A model generated the notes under the pieces. It was not told the DNA's origin and did not search any database. It was given only the letters and a program-made list of their open reading frames with translations. From Deltaproteobacteria bacterium (lineage in GTDB: Bacteria > UBA10199 > DSSB01): DNA of 12,621 nucleotides. Each line of letters starts with the position of its first letter. Positions within the stretch are counted from its first letter, which is position 1. Shown in pieces: positions 4,684 through 12,621 of this stretch. The position numbers were made by a program, and so were the translations under genes. The DNA lies in the NCBI GenBank assembly GCA_021414045.1, contig JAIOPF010000361.1:1-12621 (forward strand), in the 5' to 3' direction.

Positions 4684-6903
4684 GTGAATTTTCGCGTTCA
4701 TTACGGAACGCCCGACGTCTCGACGCAGCCGTCCCCTTTCCGTCCCAATTTTCATGGACCCAGCCAAGCCTCGGATCGCGAGGAATGGAATTCCCTTTCC
4801 CAAGAAACCGACCCACAACTTCGCAGCGAGGCGATGCTGCAATTCGCCCGTCGCCAGGAAGAATCCGATCACTTCGATACGGCCGCCGCGGTTTATGGTT
4901 CCCTTCTAGAGACCGCTCCCGAAGCGGGCATGAGGGAACGCGCGCGCGGGCGCTTGGATGCGATGCTCGGACGTGGTGACTTGGGTTCGCGGGCGGAGTT
5001 CCTGATGAGACGCTTCGCCCGCCAGGCCAGCGATCCCAGCACTTTATTGGCCATGGGCGTCGCGGGAGCCGTCTTCCGTATGACGCGCTTGGCGACGCTC
5101 TCCCGCTTGTCCGCCACTCCGACTCCAGGATTTTTGACGCGCTTTTTGGGTACGGGCCGCGCGGCCTCCCTCGCTGGTTTCGCCCTGGAGGCGCCGACCT
5201 TTACCTTGGCTTCGAGGTTGGGAAATGAAGCCCTGGGATCGTCCCAAGCCTGGGACCGCGCTTCCCTGGGTCGAGATTTGGCCTCGAGTTATTTGGTTTT
5301 GGGCGGCTTGCGACTCGCCGGTTGGGCGAGCGCGGCCTCCTATCAGCGCCTGGCCTCCACCCCACTGCAAGGGCGTGGCTTGCAAGCCGCGACACAAACC
5401 TTGTTTCAACAGGGTGGGATGCTGACCGGGATTCTATTGGGACACCGTCTGGAGCAATGGGCGGGCCTGCGTCGTCCTCAAGAGGGCGGAGCCCTCTTGA
5501 TCGATTCCTTGGCGACGCTATTGCAGTTTCATGTCGCCGGCAATCTCAGCCGCCAGGCCTTCGGTAGCCGATGGCAGGCTTGGGAGCGGGGACTGGATAG
5601 CCAGGGAGCAGGACTCATGGAAGGCCTGCGGCTTCCCGAATTTCCAGTGCCAGAAAACGCGCTGGCTTGGGCGTCCCCAGGAACCGTAAGCCGACCCCTC
5701 GCTGGCCCACGTCAACCCCGAGGCCCGGAAATCTTGATGATGGTGGGGGATGGGGAAGGCAAGATCCGGGGAGAAGGTTCTGGGCCACCTAGCGCGGACA
5801 CCACCCAGCCTTTCCGGACGGAGGCTAGGCCCGCGACCGCCGAAGCTGAAGGTGAGCTCCGCGACCCCTTGGAAGTCGAATCGGCAGCCCAACTCATGCG
5901 GCGAATGAACGATCCCGACTTGAATTTCCGGGAGGCCTTGCTCGAGAGGGATTTGGAATTTCGTTTTAAGGCCCCGAACCCCGAGTTGGGGACGACGGCG
6001 CGCATCGAACGATCCATCCCGAGTATTCTGCAATTTCTCAATGCCATCGCGATCGGCAAGTCCATCCCGGCAGGACGTCGTGTGGTGATTGTGCAAGACG
6101 GCGAGGGTTGGGGGCGATTTTCCCTGATTCGAGGCGAGAAAGCTTTTGAATGCCATCCGCCGTTACCGGAGACCGCGGAGAGCGCCCCCGCTCGCCCATC
6201 TCCGCCTCCGCCCCCTTCGGCGGAAGCGGAACGCAATGAAACGAATGAGTCCGAACCGCCGAAGAGTCCCGGCCGCGGAGTGGTCTCGCCTTTGGCTCCG
6301 AAAGCCGAAGCCGAAACCGCGAAATTGAGCGCTGAGGAAGAGGAGGCGCGCAGCATTCCCTTGCGGACTTTGTTGGTCGAATCCTTGCCGCGCGTCCTGG
6401 AATTGGCCGGACGGCAATTTCAGAGACGCGGAACGACGGGCCCGGTTTTGCTCGAAACGGGAAGCGTCGATTTGCCGGCCCTCGAAACTTTGGAGACGGA
6501 TTTCGTGCAAGAGATTCCCGCGGGAACTCTCTTCAAGCTCTATGTCTCCGAAACCCGCCAAACCTTTCGGGGGACGGCGGAAGAGGGCCGTTTGCGGTGG
6601 GCCTCCATCGAGGACAAAGGTTGGGACCATTCCACTATTTTTTCCGCGACCACGGTGCGTTCGGTCATCGAGGCCTATCAAGCCCTCTTGGCCCATTCAC
6701 GCTCGGAAAGTCCTTCCAGCGGAGAATTGACCCTGCGTTTCCGCGGAGCGACCCCCAGCCGGGACTTCTTGGGTGAATTCGTGGCTTCGACCTTGGACCG
6801 CTTTCCCATTCCCGGGCGCGATTCCATTCGCTTCGAATTAGGGGGCGAAGAAGCTCCTCTCGTGTTTACCCGGGGGGCCGATGGACGTTGGAGCCGGGAA
6901 TAA
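4684..6903 (+). CDS. unrecognised 739-aa protein sharing a module with the next gene
   Basis: I do not recognise this protein, and no signal peptide is evident. After a Pro/Ser-rich leader, residues 45-95 form helical hairpins of TPR-like character (MLQFARRQEESDHFDTAAAV). Residues about 102-303 are an Ala/Leu/Gly-rich module with conserved LLAMGVAG, SLAGFALEAPTFTLASRLGN and MLTGILLGHRLE segments; some are hydrophobic enough to be buried or membrane-associated. Residues 320-400 and 500-560 are Pro/Glu-rich linkers. Two C-terminal mixed alpha/beta parts (about 400-490 and 565-739) each carry an IPAG-type turn followed by a strand. The module recurs in the next gene with 55 identities in an 80-residue stretch. 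Translation starts at GTG. A 121-base gap separates it from the next gene, so they may be one transcript. Confidence 0.8.
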   Translation: MNFRVHYGTPDVSTQPSPFRPNFHGPSQASDREEWNSLSQETDPQLRSEAMLQFARRQEESDHFDTAAAVYGSLLETAPEAGMRERARGRLDAMLGRGDLGSRAEFLMRRFARQASDPSTLLAMGVAGAVFRMTRLATLSRLSATPTPGFLTRFLGTGRAASLAGFALEAPTFTLASRLGNEALGSSQAWDRASLGRDLASSYLVLGGLRLAGWASAASYQRLASTPLQGRGLQAATQTLFQQGGMLTGILLGHRLEQWAGLRRPQEGGALLIDSLATLLQFHVAGNLSRQAFGSRWQAWERGLDSQGAGLMEGLRLPEFPVPENALAWASPGTVSRPLAGPRQPRGPEILMMVGDGEGKIRGEGSGPPSADTTQPFRTEARPATAEAEGELRDPLEVESAAQLMRRMNDPDLNFREALLERDLEFRFKAPNPELGTTARIERSIPSILQFLNAIAIGKSIPAGRRVVIVQDGEGWGRFSLIRGEKAFECHPPLPETAESAPARPSPPPPPSAEAERNETNESEPPKSPGRGVVSPLAPKAEAETAKLSAEEEEARSIPLRTLLVESLPRVLELAGRQFQRRGTTGPVLLETGSVDLPALETLETDFVQEIPAGTLFKLYVSETRQTFRGTAEEGRLRWASIEDKGWDHSTIFSATTVRSVIEAYQALLAHSRSESPSSGELTLRFRGATPSRDFLGEFVASTLDRFPIPGRDSIRFELGGEEAPLVFTRGADGRWSRE
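4987..5592 (+). repeat. shared Ala/Leu-rich module, copy 1
   Basis: This codes residues about 102-303 of the 739-residue protein. It is homologous to copy 2 at 7502-8125: 55 of 80 residues match by hand between residues 102-181 here and 160-239 there. The near-invariant segments are LLAMGVAG, EAPTFTLA-RLGNEALG, GILLGHRLE, and LLQFHVAG-LS-QAFGSR. The module family and function are unknown to me. Confidence 0.9.
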
Positions 6904-7024: not shown

Positions 7025-9871
7025 ATGACTCGAGGCTTTGGGGGCCCCACTGGGTACCCGTCTATTTTGTCGGCAGGCCGTCACGATTTGCAATCGGGAC
7101 TAGCCTCCGACAGCGGCACTGGCAATGCGCCCTTTTCGGGCTCTGCCGTATTAGCGCGATTTTTGGAGGGAGGAGAACAACCAGGGCCCCTTAGTCAGGC
7201 CCTGCGAGCCCATGACGGCGACCTTAGGGCCACTCTAGCGAGTCTATCCGCCACGGAACGACAAACCCTGCAGCGACGTTTAGACCCTGCTGGCTTGGAA
7301 GAGCTGCTCAGCCTAGGCGGAGAAAGCGACGCCAATTTATTCTTTGAAGGCCTGCTGGCCTTCGGAACCCGTCAAGAACAGGCGAATCGCCTGGAGATCG
7401 CGACCTCTATTTATTCCATTATTCAAGGCCAGGCCGAAACCGGGCTAGGGGCCCGCGCCCGACAAAGGCTGGGTGCGGTGATGGGCAGCGGCGGCGGGGG
7501 AGCGCGAGCGGAGTTTTTGCTGCGGCGCTTGACGCAGGAAGCCTGTGAGCCCAGTGCGTTATTGGCGATGGGCGTGGCGGGGATGGCCTTTAAGGTGACG
7601 CGTTTAGCGGCCTTGTCGCGTCTGGCGGCGACGCCGACGGGGAATTTTTTGACGCGGGGTTTCGGGGCCCGGGCCATTGCGTCCTTGGCGGGCTTCGCCG
7701 TGGAAGCGCCGACCTTCACGCTGGCGGGTCGCTTGGGGAACGAGGCCTTGGGCCGTCACCAAGATTGGAGCGGCCGTGCCTTGAGCCGGGACATCGCCTC
7801 GAGCTTTTTGGTGTTGGGGGCGATGAAGGCGACGGGCTGGGCGACCGGAGCGGCGTTTAATCGAGTGCACGGGATCAATCCCCTGACAGGTCAGGCGACG
7901 CGCCTGACGGGCCTGAGCGGCGTGACGCAGCGTCTGTTGCCGCAGGCGGGGATGCTGAGCGGGATACTGCTTGGGCACCGGTTGGAAGAGCGCTTTGGCT
8001 TGCGTGAGCACGTGGACGGGGCGACGACGTTGGTGGACAGCCTTGCGATGCTGCTGCAGTTCCATGTGGCTGGCCGGCTCAGCCAACAGGCCTTCGGATC
8101 CCGGTTCCAGGCTTGGGAACAGGGAATGGAGCGGCAAACCGAGCTCTTGGCCCAGCAGAACCGTCGTGCCCGGGGCCCAGGATTGTTGGCCAGCCAAATC
8201 GGCGATCTTAATGGAATCACGCCCGCGCTGGCGATGGCGGGTTCCGAGTCGATCCACGATTCCACGGTTCATATGAGCATTTTGGGCGAGGGGACGGGCG
8301 GCGATCGCTTGCCGCCTTCCGAACCTCCCCGCGGCGGAGGAGGCCCCGGCGATGGGGGCGGTGGACGCCGAATTCCGCCCGCCGGTTTGGCCGAGGCCAG
8401 GCGGCAGTTGGAAATTTTTCGCGATAACCGCGACCGGGGCGACCACGATTCGATCCCGGCTTTCGCCCTGGCCCTGCGCTATCTGCGCGAGCATCCCGAA
8501 GCCGCCCGCGAGGCCCTCATCGGTCGCACCGATCTCAGCATCCCTCATTTGGATGAAATTTTCCGCGCCACCAAGCCGGAAGGACACGACATCCTCACGA
8601 ATGAAAATATTCGTCGCGTCTTGATCCCGAATCGCGGGGAGATCGCCTTGCGTCTCGCCAGGGGATTGCGCGCGGAAGGCCTGACTCCCGTGGTTTTGGT
8701 TCCCACCGTCGAAGGCCAGGCGGCCTGGGCTCGCCAAATCCGCGAGATGGGCGGAGAAGTGCGCCTTATCGAAGGGGCGACGCCGGCGGAATCCTATCGC
8801 AACGCTTATTTGAATATCCCTCGCATTCTGAACGAGGCCAGGGAAGCCGATGTTCAAGCCGTGCACCCGGGCTATGGGTATCGATCGGAAAGTCCCGAGT
8901 TCACCCGCGCCTTGGAAGATGCGGGAATCGTCCTCATGGGTCCCTCTGTGCGATCCAGGGAGCGCGCCGGCGACAAAGACATCGCCAAACAGGCCTTCAT
9001 CGCCGCCGGAGTTCCGGTGGTTCCGGGGACCCGTCGCGGTTATACCGAAGTCGAGGGCTTGGTCGCCGAGTTGGGCGAATTGAACATGGTCCGCAACGGC
9101 GAGTTGGCCTTTCCAATTCGCCTCAAGGCCGTGGCAGGCGGCGGCGGACGCGGTCAAAGGACGGTGCGCAGCCTGCAGGAATTGCGCGACGTTTTCTCGC
9201 GGCTCTCCGCCGAGGCCCAAGTTGGTTTTGGCAATGGCTCGATCATGGCCGAGCGCTTCGTTTCCCGGTTCCATCACGTCGAATTCCAAGTGATGGCGGA
9301 TCGCTTCGGAAACACGATTCAGTTGGGCGAGCGCGAGTGCACATTACAAGAGCGCAATCAGAAGCTGGTCGAAATCCATCCGGCGGCGATCTTTGACCGA
9401 TTTCCGGGTCTGCGCGAACGCATGGCGGAAGCTTCCGTGAACGCGGCCCGCGCCATGAATTACACGGGCCATGGAACCGTCGAATTCATGGTCGACCCCG
9501 AGACCGGCGATTTCTTCGCGATGGAAGTGAACGCCCGCATCCAGGTCGAGCACCGAGTCACCGAGGCGGTGACGGGTTTCGATTTGATCCGGGAGTCCGT
9601 CCGCGTGGCGCGAGGCCTGCCGCTCTCCGTGAGCCAGGACCAGATTCGTCCGCAAGGCGCCGCTGTGGAAATCAGGATCAAGGCGGTGGACCCGATGCGC
9701 CGAGATCGGGACGGAAACGCCGCTCCAGCCCCCGGCTTGGTCGAGGAGTTTTCAAGATCATCGTCACGGCCGAGAACCGTTCCGCCGCCGTCGCCCGTGC
9801 GGCCGAAGTGCTGCAACGGACGATCTTGCGCGGCAGCCAGGGCTTTTCCAGCGACATCTCGCGCCAGCTGA
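7025..9871 (+). CDS. unknown module fused to a biotin carboxylase domain, frame broken near 9750
   Basis: As it stands this frame reads 948 residues. Residues 104-370 are the module shared with the previous gene; 420-450 are a Gly-rich linker; about 455-520 a small helical stretch. Residues 528-909 are a biotin carboxylase, which uses ATP and bicarbonate to carboxylate biotin: VLIPNRGEIALRLARGL, VHPGYGYRSE, GDK with Lys651, LKAVAGGGGRG with Lys701, HHVEFQ, GTVEF, MEVNARIQVEH with Glu834, Asn836, Arg838 and Glu842, then EIRIK. The ATP and catalytic residues of bacterial AccC are therefore present; VEHPVTE reads VEHRVTE. After GLVEEF the frame yields 39 residues of low-complexity nonsense and stops at TGA 9869-9871. 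Homology resumes in another frame, so this is the N-terminal part of a larger gene. Confidence 0.85.
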   Translation: MTRGFGGPTGYPSILSAGRHDLQSGLASDSGTGNAPFSGSAVLARFLEGGEQPGPLSQALRAHDGDLRATLASLSATERQTLQRRLDPAGLEELLSLGGESDANLFFEGLLAFGTRQEQANRLEIATSIYSIIQGQAETGLGARARQRLGAVMGSGGGGARAEFLLRRLTQEACEPSALLAMGVAGMAFKVTRLAALSRLAATPTGNFLTRGFGARAIASLAGFAVEAPTFTLAGRLGNEALGRHQDWSGRALSRDIASSFLVLGAMKATGWATGAAFNRVHGINPLTGQATRLTGLSGVTQRLLPQAGMLSGILLGHRLEERFGLREHVDGATTLVDSLAMLLQFHVAGRLSQQAFGSRFQAWEQGMERQTELLAQQNRRARGPGLLASQIGDLNGITPALAMAGSESIHDSTVHMSILGEGTGGDRLPPSEPPRGGGGPGDGGGGRRIPPAGLAEARRQLEIFRDNRDRGDHDSIPAFALALRYLREHPEAAREALIGRTDLSIPHLDEIFRATKPEGHDILTNENIRRVLIPNRGEIALRLARGLRAEGLTPVVLVPTVEGQAAWARQIREMGGEVRLIEGATPAESYRNAYLNIPRILNEAREADVQAVHPGYGYRSESPEFTRALEDAGIVLMGPSVRSRERAGDKDIAKQAFIAAGVPVVPGTRRGYTEVEGLVAELGELNMVRNGELAFPIRLKAVAGGGGRGQRTVRSLQELRDVFSRLSAEAQVGFGNGSIMAERFVSRFHHVEFQVMADRFGNTIQLGERECTLQERNQKLVEIHPAAIFDRFPGLRERMAEASVNAARAMNYTGHGTVEFMVDPETGDFFAMEVNARIQVEHRVTEAVTGFDLIRESVRVARGLPLSVSQDQIRPQGAAVEIRIKAVDPMRRDRDGNAAPAPGLVEEFSRSSSRPRTVPPPSPVRPKCCNGRSCAAARAFPATSRAS
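7502..8125 (+). repeat. shared Ala/Leu-rich module, copy 2
   Basis: This codes residues about 160-367 of the ACC-like gene and is homologous to copy 1 at 4987-5592. Base use differs from copy 1: here GCG, ACG, TTG, GTG and CTG codons dominate, while copy 1 mixes GCC, ACC, TCC and GTC. This hints at a separate history for the segment. Confidence 0.9.
9743..9765 (+). other. frame junction with missing biotin carboxylase residues
   Basis: Upstream, codons beginning at 9743 read EEF; downstream, codons beginning at 9751 read FKIIVTAENRSAAVARA in the frame one base earlier. In the AccC family about 28-30 residues, including the Gly-rich GPGVR and YDS segments, normally separate these two parts. 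A deletion of about 85-90 bases, of length 3n+1, would explain both the lost residues and the frame change. A single-base error would not explain the missing residues. Confidence 0.8.
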
Positions 9872-12621
9872 ACCTCGTGCGGACGCGCGCGGTCGCCGAG
9901 GCGAGTTACGACAACCGTTTCGTCGACGAGTGGACTCGCTTGGGCGGGGAAAATTTCGCATCGGCGCCGCATCGAGAATCCGCCTTGATCGGCAGCGACG
10001 GACCCTTCCTACATTTCGAGGTTGGAGGCCAAGAGACCATTCCTCCGGCTCGGCTGGAACAACACGCCGCCGCCTTGAGACTCTTGTTGCATGATGCCGA
10101 GTCCGCGGTGGAAATGCCTCTGACCGGTCCTGTCGCGGAGTGGGTGCGCCGCAATCCCGAGCTGCGCGAGGAATTTCTGCGAGAAGCCCCCGACCGCGGT
10201 ACCTGGGCCCAGACGGAAAGCGGGGGTGAGTTGCGGCAATTGGTGATGTTCCAAAACCACCGGCCCCTCCGTATCCTGCTTGGGCGGCGCGCAATGATGC
10301 CCACCGGCAAAGGTCCGCAATCTTATGCGGAAGAACCTCTCGTCTACGACCTGCAATTCAATCCTGAGGGTTCCGCATTGCAGAGCGTGGCGCTTTATGC
10401 CCAGCGCGACGGTAGGATGGTGCGCATTCAATCCCTCGATCGCGGTAATTCGTTGTTCCAGGCAAGCGCGAACGGATTGGAATATCAGCTATACTCCCAA
10501 AAGGGTTCCAGCACTCCCGCCGCGTTAAACCTAAGGCTTATTCCTGCCGGCAACCATCGTGGACTTGAGATCCGCGACCGCGTCGGCAACATCCTACTTT
10601 CCCTGTCTCCGGAGCGCGTCATGGAATCCCCGGCTCAGCGCCTGTTGAGCCTCTTTGAATTCAGCGAGGACCAGGTCCCGGCCCATGTCCGCCAGCGATC
10701 GGAAACTCAAATCCGGGAGCTTTTGGGACAGATGTCCGCCACCCCTCGAGGCAACGGAGCGCGCGAGGAATTTTTGACGGCGTTGGGGCGCAGCCCGGTC
10801 TCGATGGTGCGGCGCCTGCTGAGATTGGCGGATGAGAGCCGCGATCCGGCGGAACGCCGGTTGATCGACGAAATCATCGCGCGTCGCGAAATTACGGGTT
10901 TTTGGCACCGACATCGCTTCGAATCCTACGAGGCCGTCGATGAAAATACCTCCCTGGTCCGCTTCAACGAGACCGGCGCCGACGGGACGAGCTTTCCCCG
11001 CTTAATGCTGCGAATCCACAGCGAGACCGGGCTGGAGCCCGGGGATCTGGTGGACAAGGCCCTGGGTCATTTGACTCAGGCGCAAGGCGAGGTTCTGGAA
11101 GCGCGCGATCACGTCATTCAAATCGTTTCGCGTCATTTCGATCCGGCCCATATCGAGCGGTTCCAGTCGGCTCTCAACGTGGCCGCGCAAGCCCGCGCCA
11201 TCATCGGTTCTCCCGAAGGGACCCGTGAACTCGGCGTCAAGCGCCTCACCTTGGTCGTGGATAGACCCGGGGAATATCCGGACTATTTCACCTTCCGTCG
11301 CGCCGAAAATGCCATGGGCCAACGCGAGGGACGTTACGAAGAGGATACCCGCTATCGCAGCGTCCATCCCATGCTCGCACATCTCATCGAATTGCGCCGC
11401 CTGGACCAATTCAGTTTGGAACGCGACCTCACCAATTCCTCGCGCACCACCCATATTTACTTCGCGAGGAATAAGGCGGCTCCCGGAGTGGATGCCGGAG
11501 CCGATCAGCGAATTTTCGGCCTGGGCCTGGTGCCGGAGGCGACCATCGAGCGGAATGCCACCGGAGAACTGCAAGAAATCCCGAAGGTCGAGGAGGGCTT
11601 CGTCGACGTTATCGGGGCCATGCACCGCTCCATCGAGTCTCTGGAAGGGCGTCGGCCTTACTGGAACCGCATGTTTCTCAACATTCAGCCCATCCTGGCC
11701 GTCACCGACGCGGAAGTCGCCGGCTACGCCGAGCGCTTGGCGATTCGGCATCGCGACCAGCTCCGAGGCCTTGGTCTCGAGAAGGTCGTGGTCAAGGGAC
11801 GTATCCGCGACCCACGGGAGCCGGAAGGTTATCGTACGATCCTGGTGCGCGTCACCAATCCGACCAGCTTTCGCTATGAGCCGATGATCCACAACGTGGT
11901 TCGGGCGCGGGTACAAGCCGCGGATGGGTCCATCTCGCAGCGGGAAGTTTTGCTGCGTAACGGTACCTATGAAAATTGGCGCGCTGCGCGGGATACGGGC
12001 CGAACGGACTATGCGATTCCCAATGGAGAGTGGGCCCCGGCCGATATCCCCATACGCCCGGCGACTCCCGCGGAAATCCGCGAGCAGCAGGCAAGGGCGC
12101 GGGGCGCCGTGTGGGCTTATCGCATTCCCGAGTTGATCGAGCAGGAAGCGGAAACCTTCCGCGTCCAAAACGGCCTGGGAACCGCGCGCCTTCCCGGAAG
12201 CGAGCGGCCGGAAGCATCGGCTTCACCGAATTTCGTCGAACTCGACTTGGATCCCGCGAGCACCGTGATGGATTCCAGGACGGGCCTCATCGATTACAAT
12301 CAGGGACGGCTGATTCCCGCCGTCGACGCCGAAGGTCTGCCTCGGCCGGCCGGACAAAACCAGGCGGGGGTGGTCATCGGAATTCAAAGCGACAACGTCG
12401 GGATTCCCATCCGGCGGGTCGTGATCATGGGCGATTTGACGCACGCCAGTCGCGGGTCGCTTTCGGCCAACGAATGCGCGCGTATCAATGCCGCGATCCG
12501 TTATGCCGCCGAACAAGGACTCCCCGTCGATTGGTTCACGGCCAGTTCCGGCGCGGAAATTCATGAAAAACGCGGGGTGGAGGGGCTCGATGCCACGGCC
12601 TCCACGGTACGCGAGATCGTC
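9751..12621 (+). CDS. eukaryote-type acetyl-CoA carboxylase central region and start of carboxyltransferase domain (continues past window)
   Basis: The frame is open for 957 codons with no stop to the window end and no credible start of its own, so it is the continuation of the gene at 7025. It begins with the biotin carboxylase tail (IVTAENRSAAVARAAEVLQ, RGSQGF). A beta-rich stretch at about 10345-10610 sits where ACC has its interaction domain. From about 10620 the sequence follows the ACC central region: EYPDYFTFR, RYRSVHPMLAHLIELRRLDQF, THIYFAR, MFLNIQPILAV, ILVRVTNPTSF, VWAYRIPELIEQE. At about 12220 the carboxyltransferase domain opens with VELDLD, VVIMGDLTHASRGSLS and WFTASSGAEIHE, matching the ACC VIVIGNDITY and SANSGARIG blocks. 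No biotin-lysine motif is present. ACC makes malonyl-CoA for fatty-acid synthesis; activity here is uncertain. Confidence 0.8.

What the first reader, a model, noticed from the sequence alone, without database searches (positions are those of the whole stretch)
7025..12621. Eukaryote-type single-chain ACC architecture in a bacterial chromosome, with an extra N-terminal module
Seen: biotin carboxylase motifs, then segments aligning in order with the ACC central region (EYPDYFTFR, MFLNIQPILAV, VWAYRIPELI) and the carboxyltransferase start (VVIMGDLTH, ASSGAE). Known: bacteria normally split ACC into AccA, AccB, AccC and AccD, while the fused BC-carrier-central-CT chain with the non-catalytic central region is the eukaryotic form. 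I know of no characterised bacterial protein with this central region. Inferred: a fused, scaffolded ACC or ACC-like enzyme tethered to an unknown roughly 520-residue N-terminus.
Basis: partly seen in the sequence, partly recalled or inferred. Interest (0 to 1): 0.88.

Follow-up and report, generated by a model that had tools for sequence, protein, structure and literature searches.

The report
Bacterial ACC relative lacking biotin carrier
A bacterium carries a giant relative of our own fat-making enzyme acetyl-CoA carboxylase that keeps its two catalytic ends and part of its eukaryote-style scaffold but has lost the biotin arm between them, and it is fused to a tether domain that dozens of other proteins in the same cell share.

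The parts
7025..9871 (+). First reading frame of the gene (948 aa, ATG): N-module, linker, biotin carboxylase; in-frame homology to relatives ends near 9748
   Evidence: ORF; Pfam; aligns to residues 2-956 of the intact G001 homologue
7025..8404 (+). N-terminal module, all-helical in the model, shared with dozens of other proteins in the genome
   Evidence: E 2e-179, model positions 2-461; 36 matches in this genome; structure (pLDDT 80.6)
8609..8950 (+). Biotin carboxylase N-terminal domain (PF00289)
   Evidence: residues 529-642
8972..9628 (+). Biotin carboxylase ATP-grasp domain (PF02786) with conserved Lys/His/Glu/Arg motifs
   Evidence: residues 650-868; motifs
9749..9753 (+). Break: 5 nt where three relatives have 114 nt; loss of about 109 nt and change of frame, removing part of the BC C-domain
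   Evidence: frames
9754..12621 (+). Second reading frame (ORF listed from 9808), runs off the contig end
   Evidence: aligns to residues 979-1947 of the G001 homologue
9955..10605 (+). Beta-rich region between BC and central region, where BT and biotin carrier stand in other ACCs; no biotin motif
10654..12075 (+). ACC central region, superposes on yeast ACC AC3-AC5; PF08326 match at 11221-11874
12076..12621 (+). Start of the carboxyltransferase domain, cut by the contig end
   Evidence: model residues about 747-938 on ACC CT domains
4684..6903 (+). Upstream same-strand gene (739 aa) with the same N-terminal module (4687-5895); no Pfam family

Best explanation
The window holds one copy (interrupted in this assembly) of a distinct clade of multidomain acetyl-CoA carboxylase relatives, here called type B: N-module, biotin carboxylase, beta-rich linker, central AC3-AC5 scaffold, carboxyltransferase, without a biotin carrier. 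Shown: the homology, the fold, the missing carrier, purifying selection, and gene neighbours. Inferred: it works as a split-carrier acyl-CoA carboxylase, in which its BC and CT sites are served in trans by a biotinylated carrier from another protein (the type A paralogue's, or a free-standing carrier of the PCC-type sets), and it supplies malonyl-CoA or a related carboxyacyl-CoA to the ketoacyl synthases (and MaoC dehydratase) encoded beside it in relatives. Also inferred: the shared N-module gathers these enzymes in one place by a common docking or membrane-associated site.
For: Domains and fold. Carrier loss: none of P0001-P0016 lists PF00364, while P0017-P0120 list it (best 120 of 155 shown); motif scan of 23 type B rows; of 22 rows that cover the interval between BC and the PF08326 match, five have no lysine there at all and none has a biotin-type motif. 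Type B no more eroded than the carrier-bearing type A: BC invariant columns kept 40 of 55 (A: 44), CT 33 of 49 (A: 28). Selection: dN/dS 0.16 for G001 versus G002 (BC 0.06, mid 0.20, central 0.12, CT 0.14); window frames 0.13 and 0.17 versus G001. Separate clade with support 1.0 in the BC tree. Biotinyl/lipoyl-domain frames other than type A in all 8 genomes searched, including G004 and G010. Neighbours: KS proteins with the same N-module (G001, G004; G002 on another contig) and a MaoC protein (G004), with active-site-like motifs visible. Type A directly upstream of an N-module FAS beta protein in G001.
Against: No biochemistry; nothing shows that a carrier acts in trans, and PF00364 does not tell biotin from lipoyl carriers. 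The column of E. coli R338 (numbering recalled) is mostly F in type B (also Y, H; R in P0016), though eukaryotic-type rows have W there. The G-G-A motif of CT reads G-G-T/S/G/I (N in P0016) in B. P0012 lacks BC altogether, so BC may be dispensable in some lineage. B was found without A in G004 and G010, which speaks against a strict A-B pair. The N-module also heads sigma-factor, kinase, GGDEF and permease-like proteins, so it is not specific to fatty-acid enzymes. FAS and ACC co-occurrence is p 0.0025 by genome but only 0.08 by family.
Confidence: 0.5

Rival explanations
1. Non-catalytic or regulatory pseudo-ACC: type B binds ATP or acyl-CoA but mainly scaffolds or senses, for example as partner of type A or of the ketoacyl synthase.
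For: No carrier; altered R338 and GGA positions; BC-less relative P0012.
Against: BC motifs are kept and BC is the slowest of the four segments measured (dN/dS 0.06); type B keeps about as many invariant BC and CT columns as carrier-bearing type A; no strict pairing with A.
Confidence: 0.27
2. Complete eukaryote-type ACC, with the carrier merely missed because it is divergent or lost in the assembly gap.
For: Order BC-central-CT and the AC3-AC5 fold.
Against: Intact relatives also lack the carrier, five of 22 rows without a single lysine in the interval, while type A, eukaryote-type and G027 rows still show the motif lysine; the gap lies inside BC, not at the carrier.
Confidence: 0.05
3. A pseudogene in this organism: the 109-nt loss is real and the copy is dead, whatever the family does elsewhere.
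For: Frame-changing loss inside a catalytic domain.
Against: Both frames show constraint (dN/dS 0.13 and 0.17 against G001); a metagenome-style contig that ends inside the gene; other split frames in the same genome, in C68 and in a CT gene on C208, fit assembly or sequencing faults.
Confidence: 0.15
4. Contamination by a eukaryote or a recent transfer from one.
For: Eukaryote-type central region.
Against: Type B in six genomes of the class; it branches outside the eukaryotic clade with a long stem; the window also carries uninterrupted genes that read as bacterial (a gyrB end, an mltG-like gene; recognised by eye, no call).
Confidence: 0.02

Closest known systems
SACE_4237-type (actinobacterial homodimeric multidomain) ACC, PMC6491548
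   Same: Single chain, BC, central region homologous to eukaryotic ACC, CT of the same sub-type (CT tree, support 0.999; SACE_4237 itself was not in the tree, its type is represented by actinobacterial and acidobacterial proteins)
   Different: These have an internal biotin carrier; BC of type B branches outside them; no N-module in the ones looked at
Eukaryotic cytosolic ACC (yeast, human; 5cs4, 5csl, 8xkz)
   Different: No BCCP and no recognised BT or AC1-AC2; extra N-module; type B is not in the eukaryotic clade
[quoted passage not shown] 4rcn)
   Same: Single-chain bacterial acyl-CoA carboxylase
   Different: According to the Discussion of PMC6491548, LCC has another domain order and is a hexamer, and the central region is named there as a difference
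PCC/ACC-type split carboxylases (separate BC, BCCP, CT)
   Same: Carrier on another chain (inferred for type B)
   Different: There BC and CT are on separate chains and there is no central region (general knowledge)

Membership tests
Eukaryote-type multidomain ACC | BC domain | tested here: met
   PF00289 and PF02786 in the window; PF02785 in intact relatives
Eukaryote-type multidomain ACC | ACC-specific central region | tested here: met
Eukaryote-type multidomain ACC | Carboxyltransferase on the same chain | tested here: met
   CT start in the window; PF01039 in intact relatives
Eukaryote-type multidomain ACC | Internal biotin carrier with MKM-like motif | tested here: not met
   none in 23 type B rows by pattern; no biotin-type motif in 22 rows covering the interval, five of them without any lysine; 16 of 16 proteins without PF00364
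Eukaryote-type multidomain ACC | BT domain (PF21385) | tested here: inconclusive
   No Pfam match; beta-rich region present but not folded or searched alone
Eukaryote-type multidomain ACC | Placement in the eukaryotic clade | tested here: not met
   BC tree: type B outside (A,(eukaryote type, SACE type)); CT tree: sister to the SACE type
SACE_4237-type homodimeric ACC | Internal biotin carrier | tested here: not met
SACE_4237-type homodimeric ACC | CT of the same clade | tested here: met
   CT tree support 0.999 for B plus SACE-type; P0016 falls outside
SACE_4237-type homodimeric ACC | Acetyl-/propionyl-CoA carboxylase activity, homodimer | not testable with these tools
   needs protein
Canonical AccABCD | Separate AccA-type CT subunit in the genome | tested here: inconclusive
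   28 of 46 class genomes pass the PF03255 cut-off, but best 45 bits, partial, mostly in frames of about 500 aa; the three in G000 coincide with PF01039 genes

The most novel reading that the evidence does not exclude
A lineage of bacteria has built a 'tagged' fatty-acid assembly system: ACC-like enzymes, a fungal-type type I FAS, ketoacyl synthases and dehydratases each bear the same N-terminal helical module, which sorts them (with regulators bearing the same tag) to one intracellular site, and one of the ACCs has given up its own biotin arm to share a carrier in trans.
Probability: 0.22. Interest if true: 0.82.

Novelty: new variant of a known kind. Interest (0 to 1): 0.62.

Why it matters
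Multidomain ACCs are thought to need their tethered biotin arm swinging between BC and CT; a conserved clade that keeps the scaffold but lacks the arm makes the role of the central region directly testable. The same bacterial class holds four deep branches of multidomain ACC, including members that fall with eukaryotic ACC, which bears on where eukaryotic ACC came from. The N-module, with 34-38 matches in each of five genomes, no Pfam family and no significant Foldseek match in the PDB, looks like a lineage-specific sorting or assembly tag of unknown mechanism.

Tried and rejected

Rows dropped before counts: the BC tree used 86 of 95 and the CT tree 74 of 82 extracted domains, after removing nine named near-duplicates or pieces (script); extracted domains under 300 aa had been left out before. 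In one search, P0012, P0013 and the outlier P0016 were left out of type B. P0016 falls in the B clade for BC but outside B plus SACE-type for CT. Of 22 N-module frames fetched from G001, 20 C-terminal parts were given to Pfam.

The type A placement with eukaryotes in the CT tree has support 0.46 only. In the CT tree G019 and G014 sit with P0214 inside the eukaryote-type clade and only G034 is basal; in the BC tree all three are successively basal. P0214 and other rows of that clade come from metagenomes without a name. Papers: PMC6491548 passages and the Discussion read; PMC7602337 passages read; the other papers were seen as search listings only. Nothing on a carrier-less multidomain ACC or on the N-module showed in the listings; none of these searched for the N-module by name, as it has none.

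Full report

THE BREAK. The change of frame lies at 9749-9753. There the window has 5 nt between two conserved motifs where G001, G002 and G004 each have 114 nt. Relatives G001, G003 and G004 have uninterrupted frames of 2,423-2,460 aa; G002's runs off its contig. So the family is a real single-chain protein. Whether the 109-nt loss is biological or an assembly fault cannot be told. The second paralogue on C68 also has split frames, and a CT gene on C208 is split, which favours a fault.

WHAT IS MISSING. In intact relatives Pfam finds BC, central and CT but no biotinyl domain. Among homologues of the G001 protein, P0001-P0016 list no PF00364, while P0017-P0120 list it (best 120 of 155 shown). 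A pattern scan finds the carrier motif in that place in none of 23 type B rows; the few matches at residues 248-298 are in the N-module. All 3 type A rows, all 10 SACE-type rows and two eukaryote-type rows have it; the other two comparison rows show MKS and MKG variants with the lysine kept, so 17 of 17 keep the lysine. As a stricter test, 22 type B rows cover the interval between BC and the PF08326 match: five (G001, P0002-P0005) hold no lysine there at all over 429-433 residues, and none shows a biotin-type motif. The region is beta-rich in the model but could not be folded or searched alone.

NOT SIMPLY DEAD. The BC motifs are kept. The column of E. coli R338 (numbering recalled) is mostly F in type B; eukaryotic-type rows have W there. 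In CT the G-G-A motif reads G-G-T/S/G/I, N in P0016. Of columns invariant in other multidomain ACCs (for BC also in PCC-type enzymes), type B keeps 40 of 55 in BC and 33 of 49 in CT, against 44 and 28 in the carrier-bearing type A. dN/dS between G001 and G002 is 0.16 overall and 0.06 in BC; the window's two frames give 0.13 and 0.17 against G001 (simple Nei-Gojobori counts, dS about 1.4 in the latter, near saturation). One relative, P0012, has N-module, central region and CT but no BC.

RELATIVES AND TREE. Type B was found in 6 of the 46 class genomes held (G000-G004, G010) and type A in 4 (G000-G003; at most 7 candidates per genome were scored in these two calls). PF08326 matches 10 of 60 genomes, own included, all ten in the class. 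In the BC tree, type B (support 1.0) branches outside type A, the eukaryotic type and the SACE type; in the CT tree it is sister to the SACE type plus G027 (0.999), P0016 apart. The bacterial proteins of G034, G019 and G014 fall with eukaryotic ACC: successively basal in the BC tree, while in the CT tree only G034 is basal. The class may be the UBA10199 group of GTDB (weak inference, partly recalled: one search lists relatives of the same class and then of the same domain, nothing between; NCBI labels are 'Deltaproteobacteria' or 'bacterium').

NEIGHBOURS AND SYSTEM. In G004 type B is followed by a 296-aa gene, an N-module protein with two ketoacyl-synthase C-domain matches and an N-module protein with a MaoC dehydratase. 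G001 has a 298-aa gene and an N-module KS gene after type B, and G002 has an N-module KS gene on another contig. The sequences show ketoacyl-synthase-like Cys, His and Lys-His motifs and a MaoC D-x-N-P-x-H motif (read by eye, motif roles recalled). Type A in G001 lies directly upstream of an N-module protein with type I FAS beta domains (PF08354 1.5e-136); in G000 the FAS beta protein also begins with part of the N-module, while the FAS frames of G002 and G003 begin at contig edges. PF08354 is in 13 of 46 class genomes and in 7 of the 10 with PF08326 (p 0.0025 by genome; 0.08 when collapsed to families). For AccA, 28 of 46 class genomes pass the PF03255 cut-off, but the best score is 45 bits over part of the profile, mostly in frames of about 500 aa, and the three matches of this genome coincide with PF01039 genes; I take them as PCC-type CTs.

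THE N-MODULE. A profile from 12 copies has 34-38 matches in each of G000-G004 (36 candidates scored of 45-131, so probably more), 2 in G007 and none in the other 40 class genomes. The module stands near the N-terminus of proteins whose remainder is ACC, FAS beta, KS, MaoC, PAS, histidine kinase, GGDEF with HTH, sigma-70 with amine oxidase, ResIII with sigma-70 region 4, aminotransferase with methyltransferase, amino-acid permease-like, PLP-enzyme-like, HEAT, or nothing recognised (of 20 C-terminal parts of G001 tested matched no family). Homologues with metallo-beta-lactamase-fold domains also exist. The model is all-helical (pLDDT 80.6). Foldseek found no significant match in the PDB or viral library. 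The function is unknown; a shared docking or sorting role is inference.

MECHANISM AND VERDICT. The best reading is a split-carrier carboxylase: BC and CT on one chain held by a eukaryote-like AC3-AC5 scaffold, with biotin supplied by another protein, feeding malonyl- or acyl-malonyl-CoA into neighbouring ketoacyl synthases. Homology, loss of the carrier, selection and neighbourhood are shown; catalysis, the carrier in trans, substrate and co-localisation are inferred. SACE_4237 (PMC6491548) shows that single-chain ACC with this central region is already known in bacteria, so this is a new variant of a known kind rather than a new kind. On checking, the odds of a merely hidden carrier were lowered from 0.06 to 0.05 because.

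Noticed in passing
L037:1-7170 (G019), L036:4020-12428 (G014), L038:3804-11912 (G034): Eukaryote-type ACCs in the same bacterial class with BC, biotinyl domain, long central region and CT (BT domain over its cut-off in G019 and G014); G019 scores 1703 bits to human ACC1. All three fall with eukaryotic ACC, basal in the BC tree.
   Followed up: partly
L039:4465-11622 (G027): A multidomain ACC with a biotin protein ligase fused to its C-terminus (PF03099 3e-17, PF02237), possibly self-biotinylating.
   Followed up: no
L029:10430-15154 (G001), L138 (G000), L139 (G003): Fungal/actinobacterial-type type I fatty acid synthase domains in these bacteria; in G001 and G000 the protein bears the same N-module as the ACCs.
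   Followed up: partly
46 class genomes: No strong AccA match: best PF03255 score 45 bits, although 28 of 46 pass the cut-off, mostly in PCC-type CT-sized frames.
   Followed up: partly
P0292, P0297, P0306, L111: N-module fused to a sigma-70 factor and a flavin amine oxidase in one protein, seen in several sequences.
   Followed up: no
L003:1-6044 (G000:C68): Carrier-bearing type A paralogue of the window gene, also cut by a contig end and with split frames.
   Followed up: partly
P0012: Type B relative (1,885 aa) with N-module, central region and CT but no biotin carboxylase.
   Followed up: partly
L028, residues 1051-1480 of the type B protein (and P0002-P0005): About 430 residues without a single lysine between BC and the central match; arginine-rich composition in GC-rich genomes may be part of the cause.
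   Followed up: partly
L036:3-3737 (G014): Protein next to the eukaryote-type ACC matches the FAS1 dehydratase region (PF13452 3.5e-7), another ACC-FAS neighbourhood.
   Followed up: no
L035:717-3527 (G010): Protein kinase plus FGE-sulfatase domain protein beside the 3,819-aa type B protein, in which the N-module profile found no match.
   Followed up: no
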